This document shows, piece by piece, positions 2 to 6,362 of a stretch of 6,362 bases of DNA. The stretch comes from Candidatus Eiseniibacteriota bacterium (GTDB lineage: Bacteria > Orphanbacterota > Orphanbacteria > Orphanbacterales > Orphanbacteraceae). A model generated the notes under the pieces. The model had not been told where the DNA came from, made no database searches, and saw nothing but the letters and a program-made list of their open reading frames with translations. Within the stretch, counting starts at the first letter, position 1. Each line of letters begins with the position of its first letter. The DNA is taken from assembly GCA_029262235.1 (NCBI GenBank), contig JAJCZU010000005.1:1-6362 (forward strand), read 5' to 3'. The position numbers and the translations under genes were made by a program.

Positions 2-148
2 GGCGGCAGCAAGCCGAACGTGCAGAAGCTGCAGACGGAACTGCAGAGCCTGATGCAGAAGCGTCAGCAGATGTTCCAGACGATGCAGAACATCATGAAG
101 TCGCTGCACGACTCGTCGATGGCGGCGGTTCGCAATCTGAAAGCTTGA
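2..148 (+). CDS. sctF: C-terminal part of a probable type III secretion needle subunit (SctF/YscF/PrgI type)
   Basis: Only the last 48 codons are present; the start lies before the window. Needle subunits are small helical hairpins that polymerise into the hollow extracellular needle of the type III injectisome. The visible part is one long amphipathic helix rich in Gln and Met, without Cys or Trp, after a Gly-Gly-Ser-Lys-Pro turn. From memory of the family, it aligns without gaps to the YscF C-terminus: the Lys-Pro turn, then Leu-Gln, a Lys nine residues into the helix, Ile, Ser and Asp coincide. The last 15 residues fit the PrgI pattern K-x-[FL]-x-D-x4-[IA]-[IV]-x-N-[FL]-[KR]. The stop is followed by a strong terminator, so this is the last gene of its transcript. 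Family identity is inferred from a short fragment; another coiled helical protein is possible. Confidence 0.6.
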   Translation, partial: GGSKPNVQKLQTELQSLMQKRQQMFQTMQNIMKSLHDSSMAAVRNLKA

Positions 149-188
149 TCGATCGCGATGAGCTGACAGAGATATCGCAACAAGCAAG

Positions 189-218
189 GGCCCGGGCGGA
201 AACGCTCGGGCCTTTTTT
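189..218 (+). terminator. Strong intrinsic terminator after the needle-like gene
   Basis: A 10-bp stem (189-198 with 203-212, one G-U pair) closes a GAAA tetraloop and is followed directly by six T. It lies 40 bases after the stop codon at 148 and ends the left-edge transcript, so the arylsulfotransferase-like gene needs its own promoter. Confidence 0.93.
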
Positions 219-295: not shown

Positions 296-1672
296 ATGAA
301 GCCGACACTGAGCGTTCTACTGCTCGCTTTGATGTTCGTAATCGGGTTCTTCATTGCGGAGACGGAACTTCCGCCGTATTCCCTCCTGTTTCGCGCCTAC
401 GATGCGGTACGCATGAACCCGGTCGTCGACACTGTTTACAATCGAATTCGCCATCCGCTCGGCAAGCCTCAGGAAACGCGATCGCACTGGTCTACCGACA
501 CGACCGCCTTCCGCGGACAGTGGAGCGAAGCGCGCGATCGGTTGCATATCATCAATGAAACGGAAGAGGAGAGGAAGGCTCGCGAAGACTTCGGCGCGCT
601 GGCGTATCTGCGCAGCTACGAACTCGCGCCTCCGCTCAGCAGCGTCATCCTGCACGACGAAGAGCGTGCCTCCCCCGGGCTCAATTTCTATGTGACGGCC
701 GGTGGGCCGAGCGCATTCCTCATGGATATGGACGGTGAGGTTCTGCACACGTGGACGCTGCCGTTCGAGCAGGCGTTCCCTGCGTTCACGGGCACGGTAC
801 GGATCGGCGCCGAGTACTGGCGTTACGCGCATCTTTACGACGACGGCCGCGTCGTCGCGATCTTTGCGCGACACGGCATCGTCATGATCGACAAGGATTC
901 GCAGCTTCTCTGGGCGACGGAGGGCGACTACCATCACGTGCTCGACATCGATGAAGACGGCACGATTCTCGTTACCGGTCGACGCACCACCGAGAAGCCC
1001 GAGTGGGATAAAGAAAACAAGGTATGGGAAGAGGATATCTGTTATCTGAACCCGGAGACGGGCGAGCAGTTTCGCAGTTTTTCGCTGTTCGACGCGATCG
1101 ACAACTCCCGGTACGTCGCGCTTCGCGATCACGCGCGTGAAGATGACGGCGACCAGATGCACGCCAATACGATCGAGATTCTGGATGGAAGGTTTGCGGA
1201 TCGGAATCCCGCGTTTCGCAAGGGCAACCTGCTCGTTTCGCTTCGCCATCTCGACACGGTCGGCATCGTCGACCCGGAAACCGAGAAATTCGTCTGGGCG
1301 TTGACAGGACTCTGGAGCATGCAGCACCGACCGACGTTTCTTGACGACGGCTCGATGATGGTGTTCAACAACAACAACCCGAGACACAGTTCGCAGGTCA
1401 TGCAGGTCGATCCGCTGACGCAGAACGTGCTGTGGATCTACGACGACGACGTGTTCTATACGGGGTGCTGCGGTGTTGCGTGGCCACTCCCGAACGGCAA
1501 CGTGCTGATTACTGAATCGCAGGCCGGGCGTGTATTCGAAGTGACGCGTGACAACGAGATCGTCTGGGACTTCTACAATCCCGAGCGGCGGGGCGAGAAC
1601 GATGTCGCGATTGCGTCGGTTTACGAGATGTATCGCTTCCCGCTCGACTACGCGAAATCCTGGCTCGACTGA
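296..1672 (+). CDS. Membrane-anchored arylsulfotransferase (ASST)-like beta-propeller protein
   Basis: 458 residues. ASST enzymes move a sulfate group between phenolic compounds in the periplasm through a sulfohistidine intermediate, without PAPS. Residues 4-21 form a hydrophobic signal anchor with no clear cleavage site, so the protein is probably tethered to the inner membrane and faces the periplasm. Residues 110-450 show repeated propeller blades ending in aspartate-rich turns (LDIDEDG, FLDDGSMMVF, PLPNGNVLITES). Family signatures are DQMHANTIE (His289), LLVSLRHLDTVGIVDPET (Arg317) and MQHRPTFLDDG (His344). With His214 they match, in order, His252, His356, Arg374 and His436 of E. coli ASST, of which the last is the sulfated nucleophile; this mapping is inferred. 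AGGAG at 281-285 supports the start. A vicinal Cys pair lies at 391-392. No DsbL/DsbI-like partner is in the window. The substrate is unknown, and some family members may not be sulfotransferases. Confidence 0.85.
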   Translation: MKPTLSVLLLALMFVIGFFIAETELPPYSLLFRAYDAVRMNPVVDTVYNRIRHPLGKPQETRSHWSTDTTAFRGQWSEARDRLHIINETEEERKAREDFGALAYLRSYELAPPLSSVILHDEERASPGLNFYVTAGGPSAFLMDMDGEVLHTWTLPFEQAFPAFTGTVRIGAEYWRYAHLYDDGRVVAIFARHGIVMIDKDSQLLWATEGDYHHVLDIDEDGTILVTGRRTTEKPEWDKENKVWEEDICYLNPETGEQFRSFSLFDAIDNSRYVALRDHAREDDGDQMHANTIEILDGRFADRNPAFRKGNLLVSLRHLDTVGIVDPETEKFVWALTGLWSMQHRPTFLDDGSMMVFNNNNPRHSSQVMQVDPLTQNVLWIYDDDVFYTGCCGVAWPLPNGNVLITESQAGRVFEVTRDNEIVWDFYNPERRGENDVAIASVYEMYRFPLDYAKSWLD

Positions 1673-1678
1673 CAGGAA

Positions 1679-1719
1679 CGGCTTTGCGGGAACGGGATGC
1701 TCCGCACGCAGAGAAGCCG
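1679..1719. other. Imperfect hairpin between convergent genes
   Basis: CGGCTT-TGCG (1679-1688) pairs with CGCA (1707-1710) and AAGCCG (1714-1719) across a three-base bulge. It starts seven bases after the arylsulfotransferase-like stop codon. Neither strand has a T-run after it, so it is a weak candidate 3' end structure. The rest of the 139-base gap (1673-1811) holds a 12-base perfect palindrome, AGAGCCGGCTCT at 1768-1779, and no recognisable gene. Confidence 0.25.
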
Positions 1720-1811
1720 ACCCTCACAGCCTGCAGATCGGTGCTTTCGCTTGACCTGCCAACTGTTAGAGCCGGCTCTCCACGTTGCCTGGCTTATGAG
1801 TCGCGATCGAA

Positions 1812-2324
1812 CTAGTTGATCGTAACTTTCGTAGCGGCGAACTGATCGCCGACCACTTTGCCTTCGACCTTCGCAACCTTCGTACCACTGCAGAGACCGT
1901 ACTGATGGCAGTCAATCGTGTTGCCCGTAATCAGCATTGCCTTGCCGTCGACCAGCACCGCGGCATCGCAACCGGTCACGCCGGCCATCTTGTACATGCA
2001 TTTGCCGCAGCCGACTTCATGCGATCCGGCCGGGATGACGCTGGCCACTTTCGCGGCCGCCGCATCCGCCGTGGACGCAATGCGATCGCCGGCAGCCTTC
2101 ATGCCATCGGCCGCATCGCCTGCGAGTTCCTTCGCGTTCTCGCCGACATCCGTCGCCGCATTCTTGACCGTTTCCGCCGCATCGTACCCGGCATCCTTTG
2201 CCGCTTCGGTCGCTTCGCCGGCTTTCTCTTTTGCGTTCGCCGCCATGTCTTCCGCCTGTTCCTTGGAACAGCCCAGGAATACGACGAGTGAGAGAGCAAT
2301 CAGAATTGTCATCAACTTTTTCAT
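1812..2324 (-). CDS. Lipoprotein with Ala-rich helical spacer and five-cysteine DUF6370-like domain
   Basis: 170 residues. A lipoprotein signal peptide spans residues 1-18, with VFLGC placing the lipidated Cys at 19. Residues 20-95 are a low-complexity Ala/Lys/Glu/Asp helix with loose 11-residue periodicity, like LEA or YtxH-type surface helices. Residues 100-170 form a compact domain with C106-x2-C109, C119, C139-H140 and C145, a GK-x-M-L-I-T-G-N-T-I-D strand pair and a VEGKVVGDQF ending. This matches my memory of small DUF6370 proteins (CGxC, GC, a GK turn, a late Cys, then VxGxV). DUF6370 function is not known to me; the Cys/His set could bind metal or form disulfides. An ACCTCC complement (GGAGGT) at 2328-2333 supports the start. 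The gene is divergent from the cytochrome and convergent with the arylsulfotransferase-like gene. Lipoprotein status is firm; the family is a good guess. Confidence 0.82.
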   Translation of the reverse strand: MKKLMTILIALSLVVFLGCSKEQAEDMAANAKEKAGEATEAAKDAGYDAAETVKNAATDVGENAKELAGDAADGMKAAGDRIASTADAAAAKVASVIPAGSHEVGCGKCMYKMAGVTGCDAAVLVDGKAMLITGNTIDCHQYGLCSGTKVAKVEGKVVGDQFAATKVTIN

Positions 2325-2359
2325 GGGACCTCCGTGATTCCCTGGTAAACACAGCCCCT

Positions 2360-2389
2360 ATCCTGAGTGATCGCGCGTCCTTCTGGCAA
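2360..2389 (-). promoter_or_regulatory. Possible promoter for the minus-strand lipoprotein
   Basis: Read on the minus strand, TTGCCA (2389-2384) is followed 18 bases later by CAGGAT (2365-2360). The -35 element fits well and the -10 element only moderately. It lies 35 bases before the start codon, the right range for a short leader. Low certainty. Confidence 0.25.
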
Positions 2390-2434
2390 TAGAAAACGGG
2401 GGTTACAGGCAGCCTGGAATCGCGAGCGGAGGGC

Positions 2435-2464
2435 TTTACGGATTCCCACGGTATGGGCTAAATT
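2435..2464 (+). promoter_or_regulatory. Possible sigma70-type promoter for the diheme cytochrome
   Basis: TTTACG (2435-2440) and TAAATT (2459-2464) are 18 bases apart in the only AT-rich spot between the divergent genes. The predicted start near 2471 leaves about 29 bases of leader, with AAGGAG at 2483-2488. An inverted GGAATC/GATTCC pair (2416-2421 and 2441-2446) surrounds the -35 element and could be an operator, though six bases can arise by chance. Confidence 0.35.
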
Positions 2465-2499
2465 AATGGGACTGAATCACCTAAGGAGCTCGCTTTCTC

Positions 2500-3075
2500 A
2501 TGATACCGATCTTTCTCCGCGCGTCCGTGGCCACCTTCGCTCTCTTTCTGCTCCTTTCCGGGTGCGCCGGGGAGCCGTCCGAATCCGGGCATTCCCGTCT
2601 GGCCGTGCAGGAGGATACCGAGCCTGCGACCGCCGAACGCGGTGCGGACCTCTACGCATCCCATTGCGCGCGGTGTCACGGGATGGATGCGACCGGTACC
2701 GTTGTCTACGAAGGATCGATTCAGAAGGCGAACGGATTTACCGATCTCGTGCAGAAGGGACACGGAGGCCTCGCCGCTCTTCCGATCTTCACCGACAATC
2801 TGCTCGAATCGATCGAAATGCACCTTGCCGTAGTGGAAGGCGCCCCCGCGCTCGAGGTTCCCGAACGGGCGCGCAAGGTGTACGAACGATACTGCATCGC
2901 CTGTCACGGTCCGCAGGGTCTCGGCGGCAGCATCGCCCCGCGCACGATCACGGGCCACCCGGCCATCGCCTCGATTGTCCGGAACGGGCAGGGCGCAATG
3001 CCCCCGATCGCGGCCTCCACGCTCTCGGATGAAGACCTCGATCTGATCCAGCGATACCTCCTCTCGATTCGCTAG
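2500..3075 (+). CDS. Diheme c-type cytochrome lipoprotein
   Basis: 191 residues; a probable periplasmic electron carrier tethered by lipid. The signal peptide ends in LLSGC, so Cys22 should be lipidated. Two class-I cytochrome c halves follow. The first has C56-A-R-C59-H60 within LYASHCARCHG, and the second has C132-I-A-C135-H136 within YCIACHGPQGLGG. The second half is complete: Met167 in GQGAMPPI is the expected sixth heme ligand, and LSDEDLDLIQRYLLS is the usual closing helix. The first half aligns at VQKGHGGLAALPIF, where Met is replaced; His88 or Met107 might serve, or that heme may be five-coordinate. AAGGAG at 2483-2488 sits 11 bases before the ATG. No oxidase or dehydrogenase gene adjoins it, so its redox partner cannot be named. 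Mature diheme cytochromes of this kind resemble cytochrome c4/c5-type carriers. Confidence 0.93.
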   Translation: MIPIFLRASVATFALFLLLSGCAGEPSESGHSRLAVQEDTEPATAERGADLYASHCARCHGMDATGTVVYEGSIQKANGFTDLVQKGHGGLAALPIFTDNLLESIEMHLAVVEGAPALEVPERARKVYERYCIACHGPQGLGGSIAPRTITGHPAIASIVRNGQGAMPPIAASTLSDEDLDLIQRYLLSIR

Positions 3076-3090
3076 GGTCGCTGGCCCGAC

Positions 3091-3106
3091 TGGTATGCCT
3101 CTTGCG
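3091..3106 (+). promoter_or_regulatory. Candidate sigma54 (-24/-12) promoter for the PKD gene pair
   Basis: TGGTATGCCTCTTGCG matches the sigma54 pattern TGGCACG-N4-TTGCW at the key positions: GG and GC are exactly 10 bases apart, and TGG, A, G and TTGC agree. Transcription should start near 3116, leaving a leader of about 140 bases before the PKD gene. Sigma54 promoters need an AAA+ activator; none is in the window. Confidence 0.4.
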
Positions 3107-3160
3107 CTCCCTCTGTTATGGACACGATGAACCTCGCGGTAACGGCGAAAACGACACCAA

Positions 3161-3225
3161 AGCCGCTCAATCCTTCATGCGGGGTGGTCGAGGAAGGGAC
3201 GAGGCTGGTCAAGGGTTGAGCGGCT
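3161..3225. repeat. 15-bp inverted repeat forming a long leader hairpin
   Basis: Arms 3161-3175 (AGCCGCTCAATCCTT) and 3211-3225 (AAGGGTTGAGCGGCT) pair over 15 positions, with one G-U pair in RNA, around a purine-rich 35-base loop. No T-run follows on either strand, so it is not a standard terminator. It lies between the sigma54-like promoter and the PKD start codon, 33 bases before the ATG. It could be an RNA regulatory or stability element, or a two-half operator. Confidence 0.8.
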
Positions 3226-3235
3226 CATTCGATTC

Positions 3236-3253
3236 GGGGGCGGAATGGGGGGG
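3236..3253 (+). promoter_or_regulatory. Two G-runs (G5 and G7) in place of a normal ribosome binding site
   Basis: Runs of five G (3236-3240) and seven G (3247-3253) stand just before the PKD gene ATG at 3259. No AGGAGG-like sequence is present, so the G7 run, ending five bases before the ATG, must act as a weak ribosome binding site. Such tracts can slip in length. Confidence 0.4.
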
Positions 3254-3258
3254 ACGGA

Positions 3259-3726
3259 ATGAATGGCGAGAGAGATCGATCCTGGAAAGCCGGGCTGACG
3301 CTCGCGATCGTGTTGACGCTGTTTGCGTGCTTCATGTCTGAAATCGTGGCAGGCGAAGTCGTGCGACGCGGGCGTTCCGAGGGCGAACAGGGCATGCTCG
3401 GCGAAGGAGACGGCGCGAACGCGGTGCCGTGCGCCGACGCGGGGCCCGCGCAATGGGGCGAGATCGGCGATCGCGTGCGCCTCTGCGGCGCGGAATCGTT
3501 CGACACGGACGATCCCGTGATTTTTCTCACGTGGGAGTGGGTGCAGCTCGAGGGGCCGTCGGTCTATCTCGAGAGCAGCGCGAGTCCCGGCGCGTCATTC
3601 GTGCCGCAGGCGGCCGGGAACTACCGGTTTCGTCTGACCGTGAGCGACGGTGTCCGGGAAGCGTTCGATGAGGTGGCGGTGGAAGTGAACCAGGCAGCCG
3701 GCGGAGGGAGAGCGGGATGGATTTAG
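3259..3726 (+). CDS. Exported single-PKD-domain protein
   Basis: 155 residues. A hydrophobic segment at residues 11-30 acts as a signal peptide or anchor. The LFAC at 21-24 is a poor lipobox, and cleavage near VAG-E (30-33) is possible. After a Gly-rich linker, residues 58-143 form one PKD/REJ-type immunoglobulin-like fold, shown by ADAGPAQWGEIGDRVRL, the Trp strand TWEWVQLEGP, the PQAAGNYRFRLTVSDG strand pair and the closing VAVEV. Cys58 and Cys76 bracket the first strands and may form a disulfide. PKD domains usually mediate protein or glycan contacts and are normally appended to larger enzymes or repeated; here one stands nearly alone. The stop overlaps the next gene, so the two are coupled. 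The start is the first in-frame ATG and has a poor ribosome binding site. Export and PKD fold are well supported; role unknown. Confidence 0.8.
   Translation: MNGERDRSWKAGLTLAIVLTLFACFMSEIVAGEVVRRGRSEGEQGMLGEGDGANAVPCADAGPAQWGEIGDRVRLCGAESFDTDDPVIFLTWEWVQLEGPSVYLESSASPGASFVPQAAGNYRFRLTVSDGVREAFDEVAVEVNQAAGGGRAGWI
3703..3719 (+). promoter_or_regulatory. Ribosome binding site and overlapping start inside the PKD gene
   Basis: GGAGGGAG (3703-3710) lies six bases before the ATG at 3717, inside the end of the PKD gene, whose stop is at 3724-3726. This 10-base overlap is typical of translational coupling and fixes the downstream start. Confidence 0.8.
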
Positions 3727-4103
3727 GAAAAGTGCGGGAGCGGAGCCGAAGAGTGACGGGACTGAGTGGAATCGTATCGGTAAACGGGGGCCTTGATCCG
3801 GTGCCCGATGCGCCGGGCAGCGCAGCAGAATGCGGCCCTCTGCTCAAGCTGCCCAAGCGCGACCTTGTTGCCGAGTACGAAGCGGAAGCGACGAAGAGTG
3901 AGCCGGCACCCTCCCCGGTTTCGGCTGCCGCTGTCACGCCCGACTCTTCGATAGAATCGTTCGTGGCGCTTTTTCGAGAGATCACGGACTTCGCCGACAC
4001 GGTGTATCCCGGCTCGCGCGAAGACGACTGCGAAATCACCGTGCTCGTAGGCAGGAGGCGACTCGCGTTCCAGGTCGTGACGGTGGAATCGAAGGAACCG
4101 TAG
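3717..4103 (+). CDS. Unrecognised 128-residue protein coupled to the PKD gene
   Basis: I do not recognise this family. There is no signal peptide or membrane segment, so it is probably cytoplasmic, unlike its exported upstream partner. It starts with a basic stretch (KVRERSRR, residues 5-12), then a Gly/Pro-rich region, a charged helix around 47-60 (PKRDLVAEYEAEA), and a Pro/Ala/Ser linker at 62-78. The C-terminal part (79-128) looks folded: a helix (IESFVALFREITDFADTVY) and two short strands (CEITVLV and LAFQVVTV) joined by a basic GRRR turn. Cys residues are at 39 and 105. The small alpha-beta end would suit a chaperone or adaptor, but that is a guess from shape only. It is a real gene because of the strong internal ribosome binding site and the 10-base overlap with the PKD gene. 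Both are probably made from the sigma54-like promoter. Confidence 0.72.
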   Translation: MDLGKVRERSRRVTGLSGIVSVNGGLDPVPDAPGSAAECGPLLKLPKRDLVAEYEAEATKSEPAPSPVSAAAVTPDSSIESFVALFREITDFADTVYPGSREDDCEITVLVGRRRLAFQVVTVESKEP

Positions 4104-4116
4104 TCGGTTTACGGTT
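4096..4116 (+). other. Small hairpin over the stop codon of the 128-residue gene
   Basis: AACCGTA (4096-4102) and TACGGTT (4110-4116) form a perfect 7-bp stem with a 7-base loop that covers the TAG at 4101-4103. A second small hairpin, CCGGC (4129-4133) with GCCGG (4143-4147), follows. Neither has a T-run, so they could be weak 3' end structures or chance. The rest of 4104-4215 shows only an AT-rich patch at 4167-4180. Confidence 0.3.
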
Positions 4117-4215
4117 CGCATCGTCGCTCCGGCCCGATTCGCGCCGGCAAACGGGGCGCTGTTCCCTTCATTATTAAATCGGTCCGCATGAGATCGGTCG
4201 GCCATTCACTTTTTG

Positions 4216-4251
4216 TTTGGATCCAGGCCGTGAAGAGCTACACTGCGCGGC
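4216..4251 (+). promoter_or_regulatory. Possible promoter giving a leaderless glycosyltransferase transcript
   Basis: TTTGGA (4216-4221) and TACACT (4239-4244) are 17 bases apart, and the latter ends seven bases before the ATG at 4252. That spacing would put the transcription start on or beside the ATG, as in leaderless genes with a TANNNT box. No ribosome binding site lies at normal distance; the nearest purine run, GAAGAG, is about 14 bases away. Confidence 0.35.
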
Positions 4252-5913
4252 ATGAGTCGAATCGAACGCTTTTTGCTCGTGCTTGTGATCGTGGCCGGCG
4301 TGCTGCTGCTTTTCCGCGACGTGTCGAAGCCGTGGGACGGAATCGGCGGCTGGAACGGCACCTGGGTCAGCACGGCCGCACGCAACCATCTCGAATACGG
4401 GCTCGGCGTGACGAAGGGGATCGCGGTTCGGAACGACGAGTCCCTGCCGCCGGGCGAGTTTCGCTACTACGTGCATCACCCGGCGGGACTTCCGCTGGCA
4501 GTTGCCGCGACCTATGCGATTCTGGGCGAGTCGGAACGCTCCGCGCGGCTTTTCGCGATCACGTGCGCGATTCTCACTCTGTTCCTGCTCTTTCTGATCG
4601 GGAAAGACCTCGGCGGCGTTTCTCTCGGGCTCATGGCGGCCGCACTCGTCGCGTGCCAGCCGTTGTTCGTGCTCGCCGGCGCCATGGTCAATCACGAGGC
4701 CCCGACCGGGCTCTTCATTCTGCTTACCGTTTACTCGATCATTCGCTGGCGCCGCGACCGGAGCCGCACCTGGGGCGCCGTTTCTCTGCTGTCGTTCCTG
4801 ATCGGCACACAGTTCGGCTGGCCGGTTTATTATCTCGGGGTGCTTCTCCCGCTCTACGCGTTCTGGGTCGATCCGACACTGATTCGGAAGACGATCGCGT
4901 TTCCCGTGCTCGCCGTGCTCGCGTTCGCCCTCTTCATCGGGCATACGTACTGGGCGATCGGCGACCTCACGATCCCGGCGCTGAAGCAGTCTTTCGCGAT
5001 GCGATCTTCGGGCGTTGTCGCACTCGACACCGCGCACGACTGGGATCGGCTCGCGCAGAGCGGCGGATACGGCTTCAGTGCCGGATCGGCCGCGCCGCGC
5101 GTTCCCTACGTTGATTCGTTCATTCGAAGCGGCACGCAGCTCCTGAACCTCACAAGCCTTTCGTTTCTCCTGCTCGCGCTGATCGGGCTCGCGTCGCGAC
5201 CGCGCGGCGTCGTCTACGGACTGACGGCGGTCGGGCTGCTGCACCTCGTGATTTTCAGGCAGGGGGCGTACGAGCACTGGTACTGGTCGTATTACATGTT
5301 GCTCGGCCTCGGCCTCGCCGCCGGCTGCGGCCTGCGCTTTTTCATGAAGCGCATCTCCGAGCCGTTCGCGCGCCATCTGCTGTTTTTCTTCGTCGGCGTG
5401 CTGATCGTGATTCCGGCGTTCGGGAAGCTGCGGTTCATGAAGACCGAAGGGCGCCAGAACCTGTTCGTGCACGCGCGCGGGCTTCAGAAGATCGTGATCG
5501 AGAACGAATCGTGGCCCCGCGCCGTCGTGTTCGGCAGGGCGCTGGCCGAATCCAGGATTCCCGACGGCCCGGTGCTGACGAACCTGCCGTTCCTCGGCCC
5601 GCAGATGGAACATTACGGACGGCACCGCATTCTGCATCAGGACCGGTGGCGGTACGACGATCTCATGGCCGGTGCCCGGGAGTCGGGCGCGAAGACGATC
5701 GCGCTCGTGACACGGCTCGGCACGAGCAACGACTGGGCCGAATTCGTCGACGGCGCCCCCAGCCTGGGCTCGTTCGCGCTCGACCGCTCGCAGGTCAGGC
5801 TCTACGCGATCGACGAGATCCCGGCACGCGCGCCCGCCCCGCCAGCGGCTTCCTCCTCCCCCGGAGCCGATTCCGGCGGAGAAACGGCCACCGACCCCGG
5901 TCAGGCGCAGTAG
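4252..5913 (+). CDS. GT39-type (PMT/ArnT-like) membrane glycosyltransferase
   Basis: 553 residues. The GT39/PMT_2 family transfers sugars from polyprenyl-phosphate carriers to lipid, glycan or protein acceptors on the outer face of the inner membrane. Residues 6-22 form the first membrane helix. The periplasmic loop GGWNGTWVSTAARNHLEYG (32-50) occupies the catalytic loop position, although the classic Asp-Glu of ArnT/PMT is not obvious. YYVHHPAGLPLAVA (72-85), ERSARLFAI, MVNHEAP (145-151) and GAYEHWYWSYYML (338-350) are family hallmarks from memory. About ten or eleven membrane helices can be placed up to residue 391. A soluble domain follows (392-522), ending in a Pro/Ala/Ser-rich tail (523-553). 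No sugar-nucleotide or polymer genes adjoin it, so donor and acceptor are unknown. The start is the first ATG of the hydrophobic N-terminus, and its lack of a ribosome binding site is unusual here. Confidence 0.9.
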   Translation: MSRIERFLLVLVIVAGVLLLFRDVSKPWDGIGGWNGTWVSTAARNHLEYGLGVTKGIAVRNDESLPPGEFRYYVHHPAGLPLAVAATYAILGESERSARLFAITCAILTLFLLFLIGKDLGGVSLGLMAAALVACQPLFVLAGAMVNHEAPTGLFILLTVYSIIRWRRDRSRTWGAVSLLSFLIGTQFGWPVYYLGVLLPLYAFWVDPTLIRKTIAFPVLAVLAFALFIGHTYWAIGDLTIPALKQSFAMRSSGVVALDTAHDWDRLAQSGGYGFSAGSAAPRVPYVDSFIRSGTQLLNLTSLSFLLLALIGLASRPRGVVYGLTAVGLLHLVIFRQGAYEHWYWSYYMLLGLGLAAGCGLRFFMKRISEPFARHLLFFFVGVLIVIPAFGKLRFMKTEGRQNLFVHARGLQKIVIENESWPRAVVFGRALAESRIPDGPVLTNLPFLGPQMEHYGRHRILHQDRWRYDDLMAGARESGAKTIALVTRLGTSNDWAEFVDGAPSLGSFALDRSQVRLYAIDEIPARAPAPPAASSSPGADSGGETATDPGQAQ

Positions 5914-6016: not shown

Positions 6017-6092
6017 CCCGCAAAATCTCGATTTTCTTTCCTTTTCTCCGCAACTCCGGGCCCTCGTGTCTGGATAAGAAGGGCAAATAGGA

Positions 6093-6119
6093 CAGGAGTT
6101 ACGGGCCGCCCGGCTCCTG
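6093..6119 (+). other. Hairpin in the leader of the right-edge gene
   Basis: CAGGAG (6093-6098) pairs with CTCCTG (6114-6119), and inside it CGGG (6102-6105) pairs with CCCG (6109-6112). The T-run (6130-6134) is 10 bases downstream, too far for a normal terminator. Because the 5' arm resembles a ribosome binding site and the true site is at 6139-6144, it may instead be a leader or stability structure. Confidence 0.45.
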
Positions 6120-6152
6120 ACACACAAACTTTTTGCTTAAGGAGAAGAGAAA

Positions 6153-6362
6153 ATGATCAACCCGAACGCCAGTAACAGTGTCGGAACGCAGGTCAACCGC
6201 TACCTGGACGCCCTCGGTCTTCCGGACGCTTTCGGTGACAAGATCGGTGCCCTCGTCGACACCGCCCGCGGTGACGCTGCCGGCGCGCTTCGCAACATCG
6301 TAGATCTCAACAGTGGTCTTTCCACCAAAACGCTCGATCGCCTGACCGGCGCTCGTGGTCGT
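6153..6362 (+). CDS. N-terminal 70 codons of an unrecognised, probably abundant helical protein
   Basis: The gene starts at ATG 6153 and runs off the right edge with no stop in 70 codons. AAGGAG (6139-6144), eight bases before the ATG, is the best ribosome binding site in the window. The visible part has no signal peptide or membrane segment, no Cys or Trp. An Asn/Ser-rich start (MINPNASNSVGTQ) leads into amphipathic helices (VNRYLDALGLPDAFGDKIGALV and a helix after residue 38). Gly is coded by GGT in six of nine cases, unlike the GGC-rich neighbours, and AAC/GAC endings dominate, which suits high expression. I do not recognise the family. A polar, Cys-free N-terminus without a signal peptide would suit a type III secreted component, given the needle-like gene at the left edge, but that is inference only. 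Confidence 0.72.
   Translation, partial: MINPNASNSVGTQVNRYLDALGLPDAFGDKIGALVDTARGDAAGALRNIVDLNSGLSTKTLDRLTGARGR

What the first reader, a model, noticed from the sequence alone, without database searches (positions are those of the whole stretch)
2..218. Probable type III secretion needle gene ends its transcript at the left edge
The visible 48 residues align without gaps to remembered YscF and PrgI C-termini, including the Lys-Pro turn, Leu-Gln and the final D-x4-x-V-x-N-L spacing. A strong terminator follows. A needle gene implies a full injectisome just upstream in a genome whose other genes here are ordinary cell-envelope genes.
Basis: partly seen in the sequence, partly recalled or inferred. 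Interest (0 to 1): 0.62.

Follow-up and report, generated by a model that had tools for sequence, protein, structure and literature searches.

The report
Needle-tailed injectisome protein, two copies
The fragment at the window's left edge is not a needle gene but the tail of a roughly 370-400 residue protein that belongs to a real injectisome (type III secretion system) in an uncultured bacterial phylum, and that tail seems to be distantly related to the tail of needle proteins.

Summary
The window is one whole 6,362-bp contig (C5) of a 4.47-Mb draft genome. Bases 2-148 are the last 48 codons of a larger gene and a strong intrinsic terminator follows, as reported. Full-length relatives have about 360-430 residues, so this is not a ~80-residue needle, and PF09392 finds nothing in this genome. 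A paralogue of the window gene sits directly after sctU, followed by a SycD/LcrH-like chaperone gene. The tail is shared by several otherwise different proteins per genome, including a 108-residue protein between a small helical and a TPR protein, the layout of needle genes. Within the phylum the family occurs in exactly the four genomes with sctJ. Homology of the tail to needle C-termini is supported but sub-threshold. Two near-identical copies flank the window: the right edge (6153-6362) is the start of the other. Best reading: a secreted translocator-like or axial injectisome component with a needle-type C-terminal helix; exact function unproven. A variant of a known kind.

The parts
2..148 (+). 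3' end of the injectisome-linked gene (copy 1): last 48 codons and stop; needle-like C-terminal helix
   Evidence: 96% identical to residues 382-429 of the C10 paralogue; identical protein at the start of contig C4
186..218 (+). intrinsic terminator of copy 1 (stem 186-215, T run to 218); the identical stretch shared with C4 ends in this T run
   Evidence: fold -25.7 kcal/mol, z -4.9; repeat border
6042..6152 (+). 5' leader of copy 2, nearly identical to the leader at the left end of contig C10
   Evidence: one mismatch in ~110 bases, identity breaks off upstream of it
6153..6362 (+). 5' end of the second copy (70 codons, runs off the contig)
   Evidence: 66% identical to residues 5-68 of the C10 full-length paralogue; the same sequence, with two mismatches, ends contig C10

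Best explanation
Window 2-148 is the C-terminal end, and 6153-6362 the N-terminal start, of two nearly identical tandem copies of a gene for a secreted injectisome component ('A2' type, expected ~370-400 aa). The protein has an N-terminal helical domain, a middle domain, a Gly/Ala-rich mildly hydrophobic stretch and a C-terminal ~40-residue helix. It is exported by the genome's own type III secretion system. The C-terminal helix is a needle-type assembly helix: in the cytoplasm it is kept soluble by TPR chaperones of the SycD/YscG kind, and outside it packs like the needle's terminal helix, so that several paralogues with different heads join or cap the same tube, probably as translocators or filament/tip parts. 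Shown: gene identity, duplication, terminator, conserved injectisome neighbourhood, co-occurrence with sctJ, chaperone-like genes beside the paralogues. Inferred: export, chaperone binding, packing of the helix, translocator/axial role.
For: Full-length paralogue directly after sctU and before a TPR gene with TIGR02552 (LcrH/SycD) as best NCBIfam hit (1.2e-17, below cut-off). Operon sctI-U plus sctV by NCBIfam, several above cut-off (SctN, SctU, SctQ, SctL, SctR, SctV). Same order in G004 and, in part, in G001/G003. Family in 4 of 7 phylum genomes, the same four with an SctJ distinct from FliF. Same tail on a 108-aa protein between an 87-aa helical protein and a 138-aa TPR protein (weak CdsG match), the needle E-F-G layout, conserved in three further genomes. 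Tail-needle similarity: PF09392's only hit in seven genomes is a family member, in the right register; the PDB profile search gives a needle C-terminus among its only three hits; hhalign with controls. Papers: chaperones bind the needle's C-terminal helix (PMC9426511); chlamydial CopB/CopD were recognised by gene linkage and class II TPR chaperones bind translocators (PMC2734247).
Against: All tail-needle matches are below curated cut-offs, and the 108-aa needle candidate itself scores worst against known needles (20 of 200 permutations as good). Hydrophobic stretches are weak for a membrane-inserting translocator (maximum Kyte-Doolittle mean about 1.2-1.5). The copies beside the window have no chaperone gene next to them. 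The AlphaFold model is of very low confidence (pLDDT 39.6). The middle of the window's own gene is not assembled.
Confidence: 0.62

Rival explanations
1. The proteins are diverse secreted effectors that share only a C-terminal chaperone-docking or export helix; likeness to needles comes from binding similar TPR chaperones, not from assembly into a tube.
For: Heads differ strongly between paralogues (108, 271, 357, 429 aa) while the tail is kept; two long types are paired with LcrH/SycD-like genes; needle tails are themselves the chaperone-binding part (PMC9426511).
Against: The long types are conserved between genera (60-75% identity) and one sits inside the core operon, more like a structural part than an effector. 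Effector chaperones are usually not of the SycD class (general knowledge).
Confidence: 0.2
2. The window gene is the needle subunit SctF itself, in an unusually long form, and the 108-aa protein is a minor part such as an inner component.
For: Needle-like tail at the C-terminus; PF09392 matches a 276-aa family member in G004 over nearly the whole model.
Against: ~370-400 aa instead of ~80; the 108-aa paralogue has the needle size and the E-F-G neighbours; no PF09392 match in this genome.
Confidence: 0.06
3. The gene is an injectisome translocator, but the tail's likeness to needles is chance between amphipathic helices.
For: Sub-threshold scores throughout; without EsaG the hhalign signal falls to P 0.013.
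Against: Independent searches (Pfam in whole genomes, PDB profile search, permutation controls) point to the same family and the same C-terminal register.
Confidence: 0.12

Closest known systems
Type III secretion needle family SctF (PF09392; PrgI, MxiH, YscF, EsaG)
   Same: C-terminal ~30 residues align in register; the 108-aa paralogue has needle-like size and E-F-G neighbours
   Different: The window gene's relatives are four to five times longer, with extra N-terminal domains; no match above cut-off
Injectisome translocators paired with SycD/LcrH chaperones (YopB/YopD, CopB/CopD)
   Same: Gene directly beside an LcrH/SycD-like TPR gene in a type III operon; Gly/Ala-rich weakly hydrophobic stretch; size range
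   Different: No Pfam or NCBIfam translocator match; weak hydrophobicity; a needle-like tail
Chlamydial CdsE-CdsF-CdsG needle and chaperone set
   Same: Order small helical protein - short protein with the tail - TPR protein; the TPR protein matches CdsG weakly (NF052304, 8.2e-6)
   Different: The short protein itself has no needle match in Pfam; the cluster lies beside a kinase and a lipoprotein-like gene

Membership tests
SctF needle family (PF09392) | Match above the curated cut-off of PF09392 | tested here: not met
   No match in the genome at E<=1; window tail and full-length paralogue no match; best family member in G004 16.5-20.2 bits, cut-off 29.4
SctF needle family (PF09392) | Short protein, about 70-100 residues | tested here: not met
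   Orthologues of the window gene 367-398 aa, paralogue 429 aa
SctF needle family (PF09392) | C-terminal helix with the needle sequence pattern | tested here: inconclusive
   hhalign P 4e-4, 0/200 permutations with six needles, 3/200 without EsaG; PDB hit E 1.2
SctF needle family (PF09392) | Polymerises into a hollow tube | not testable with these tools
   needs purified protein
Injectisome (non-flagellar type III secretion system) | Core export genes sctN, R, S, T, U, V, J, Q distinct from the flagellar set | tested here: met
   a separate flagellar FlhA/FliF set on C3
Injectisome (non-flagellar type III secretion system) | Dedicated outer-membrane secretin SctC | tested here: not met
   Only one secretin in this 95.5% complete genome, in what reads as a type IV pilus cluster
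SycD-paired translocator | Adjacent class II (LcrH/SycD) TPR chaperone gene | tested here: inconclusive
   Present beside the sctU-linked paralogue and the C1 paralogue, not beside the window copies; TIGR02552 is the best match but below its cut-off
SycD-paired translocator | Membrane-spanning hydrophobic segment(s) | tested here: inconclusive
   Gly/Ala-rich, maximum mean hydropathy about 1.2-1.5 over 19 residues

The most novel reading that the evidence does not exclude
In this phylum the injectisome's axial parts (needle, and several larger tip, filament or translocator proteins) form one family that shares a needle-type C-terminal helix, much as flagellar axial proteins share their terminal helices, so that a composite needle is built from paralogues; the system has no dedicated secretin and keeps a FliO and a FliA-like sigma gene.
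Probability: 0.3. Interest if true: 0.72.

Novelty: new variant of a known kind. Interest (0 to 1): 0.5.

Why it matters
Injectisomes were reported in 2012 only from Chlamydiae, Proteobacteria and Verrucomicrobia (PMC3459982; later surveys were not found in the held library); this is a nearly full gene set in an uncultured phylum near Eisenbacteria and Latescibacterota, probably JABDJQ01. The same paper notes that needle-tip and translocon proteins cannot be placed in the evolution of the system because their similarity is low or undetectable; a family that carries one needle-like tail on both short and long proteins would be a way to connect them.

Tried and rejected
Structure of the long protein from five sequences: pLDDT 39.6, not used for fold searches. 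PDB searches with the 108-aa protein alone and with the long-protein alignment gave only chance hits. A weak DUF5398 match of the 87-aa protein did not recur in its two relatives and was dropped. A circular C5 was considered and judged less likely, because G003 has two tandem copies with the same flanks and sctV downstream. The 108-aa protein was not folded, because no locus from the sources permitted to that tool held it. Literature searches on type III secretion in Eisenbacteria, Latescibacteria or candidate phyla found nothing relevant.

Full report
What the window is. The window is the whole contig C5 (6,362 bp) of a 4.47-Mb genome in 11 contigs, 95.5% complete. Six other genomes of its phylum are held, all of one family. 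Two of them can be named from contig lengths and coordinates: G004 is JALGYY01 (LQ108M_Bin_12) and G003 is JAJRWB01 (Dive96_bin2.117, submitted as Eisenbacteria); the same-genus relative is probably JABDJQ01 (SS_bin_27, submitted as Gemmatimonadetes). The phylum is therefore probably GTDB's JABDJQ01, which PMC11323493 places near Eisenbacteria and Latescibacterota; this name is inferred.

The observation. Bases 2-148 are an open frame of 48 codons open to the left. A hairpin with a T run follows (-25.7 kcal/mol, z -4.9). The frame is real coding sequence: it is 96% identical in protein to residues 382-429 of an intact gene at C10:25414-26703(-).

Why the contig begins there. C4 begins with the same 217 or so bases (two mismatches), and C10 begins, on its other strand, with the same ~320 bases that end C5 (three mismatches). 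Identity breaks off at a terminator T run on one side and ~110 bases before the start codon on the other. So C5 lies between two nearly identical copies of one gene, cut in the middle by assembly. In G003 two such copies (86% identical in protein) lie in tandem 3.5 kb apart, with sctV ~8 kb downstream and upstream neighbours that resemble those at C10 8.8-17 kb (the neighbour resemblance was read by eye). The order C10(-), C5, C4(+) follows by inference. The sctJ-U operon with its trailing genes then ends ~25 kb upstream of the window, and sctV starts ~20 kb beyond the second copy.

The injectisome. On C10(-): FliA-like sigma gene, SctI-like (by position and by eye), SctJ, SctK-like (position only), SctL, SctN, SctO/FliJ-like, SctP/FliK-like (PF02120), SctQ, FliO (PF04347), SctR, SctS, SctT, SctU, then the 429-aa paralogue and a TPR gene. 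SctR, SctS and SctT score about as well or better against flagellar models as against injectisome models, so their type rests on the operon; SctN, SctQ, SctU and SctV favour the injectisome models. SctV is on C4 (805.7 bits, cut-off 692). A separate FlhA/FliF set is on C3. The order is kept in G004. Only one secretin was found in this genome, in what reads by eye as a type IV pilus cluster; G003 and G004 have two each, not assigned.

The family. Per genome there are four to six matches with the same tail. Long forms: A1 (after sctU, with TPR), A2 (the window copies; N-terminus 71-78% identical to G003/G004 A2 against 59-63% to A1) and A3 (with TPR). A 271-276-aa form. A 108-112-aa form between an 87-aa protein and a 138-aa TPR protein, beside a PEGA-domain kinase gene and a lipoprotein-like gene, conserved in G001, G003 and G004. 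The four genomes with the family are exactly the four with an SctJ distinct from FliF.

Is the tail needle-like? PF09392 gives nothing in this genome. In the seven genomes its only hit (E<=0.01) is the 276-aa family member of G004, positions 3-71 of 71 ending at the C-terminus (20.2 bits), and in hmmscan PF09392 is that protein's best Pfam match. A profile of 17 tails against PDB sequences returned three hits up to E 10; the third (E 1.2) is chain F of 7Y6C, labelled a co-chaperone but by the paper's residues the needle EsaG. The same EsaG stretch finds YscF and PscF only at E 0.26-0.36. hhalign against six PDB needles gives P 4e-4 over 31 ungapped columns; 0 of 200 column permutations did as well. 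EsaG was picked by my own search, so I repeated it without: P 0.013, 3 of 200. By subfamily the 271-aa type is strongest, the long types including the window's intermediate (1 of 200; 11 of 200 without EsaG), the 108-aa type not significant. I read this as probable distant homology, not proof.

Mechanism. Needle chaperones hold the needle's C-terminal helix (PMC9426511), class II TPR chaperones bind translocators, and chlamydial CopB/CopD were recognised by gene linkage (PMC2734247). With TPR genes beside A1, A3 and the 108-aa form, the simplest model is that the tail is the chaperone-bound and tube-assembling helix. Export, binding and assembly are inferences.

Verdict.

Noticed in passing
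G000 C10:7673-8368(-) and C10:8825-10123(+); L013: An LcrH/SycD-like TPR gene near a 432-aa gene whose protein holds a TFIEEAGHAID stretch (by eye, metalloprotease-like); a relative lies beside the tandem copies in G003 (L051:3510-4691). Possible further substrate and chaperone.
   Followed up: partly
G000 C2:734112-735416 (L064:8112-9416): The only secretin found in the genome sits in what reads as a type IV pilus cluster, so the injectisome seems to lack its own SctC here; G003 and G004 have two secretins each, not assigned.
   Followed up: partly
G000 C10:29907-30284(-) and 38047-38751(-): A FliO gene and a FliA/WhiG-like sigma gene, usually flagellar, lie in or at the head of the injectisome operon and are conserved in G004.
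   Followed up: partly
G000 C4:298219-299714(+); L012: A 195-aa and a 271-aa gene in tandem; the 271-aa protein carries the tail and, with its G004 relative, is the form most like known needles in profile comparison.
   Followed up: partly
window 296-5913: Between the two copies: arylsulfotransferase-like, DUF6370 (minus strand), a cytochrome c with two CxxCH motifs, a PKD-domain protein, an orphan and a PMT-type glycosyltransferase; G003 also has a membrane glycosyltransferase-like gene between its copies (by eye).
   Followed up: no
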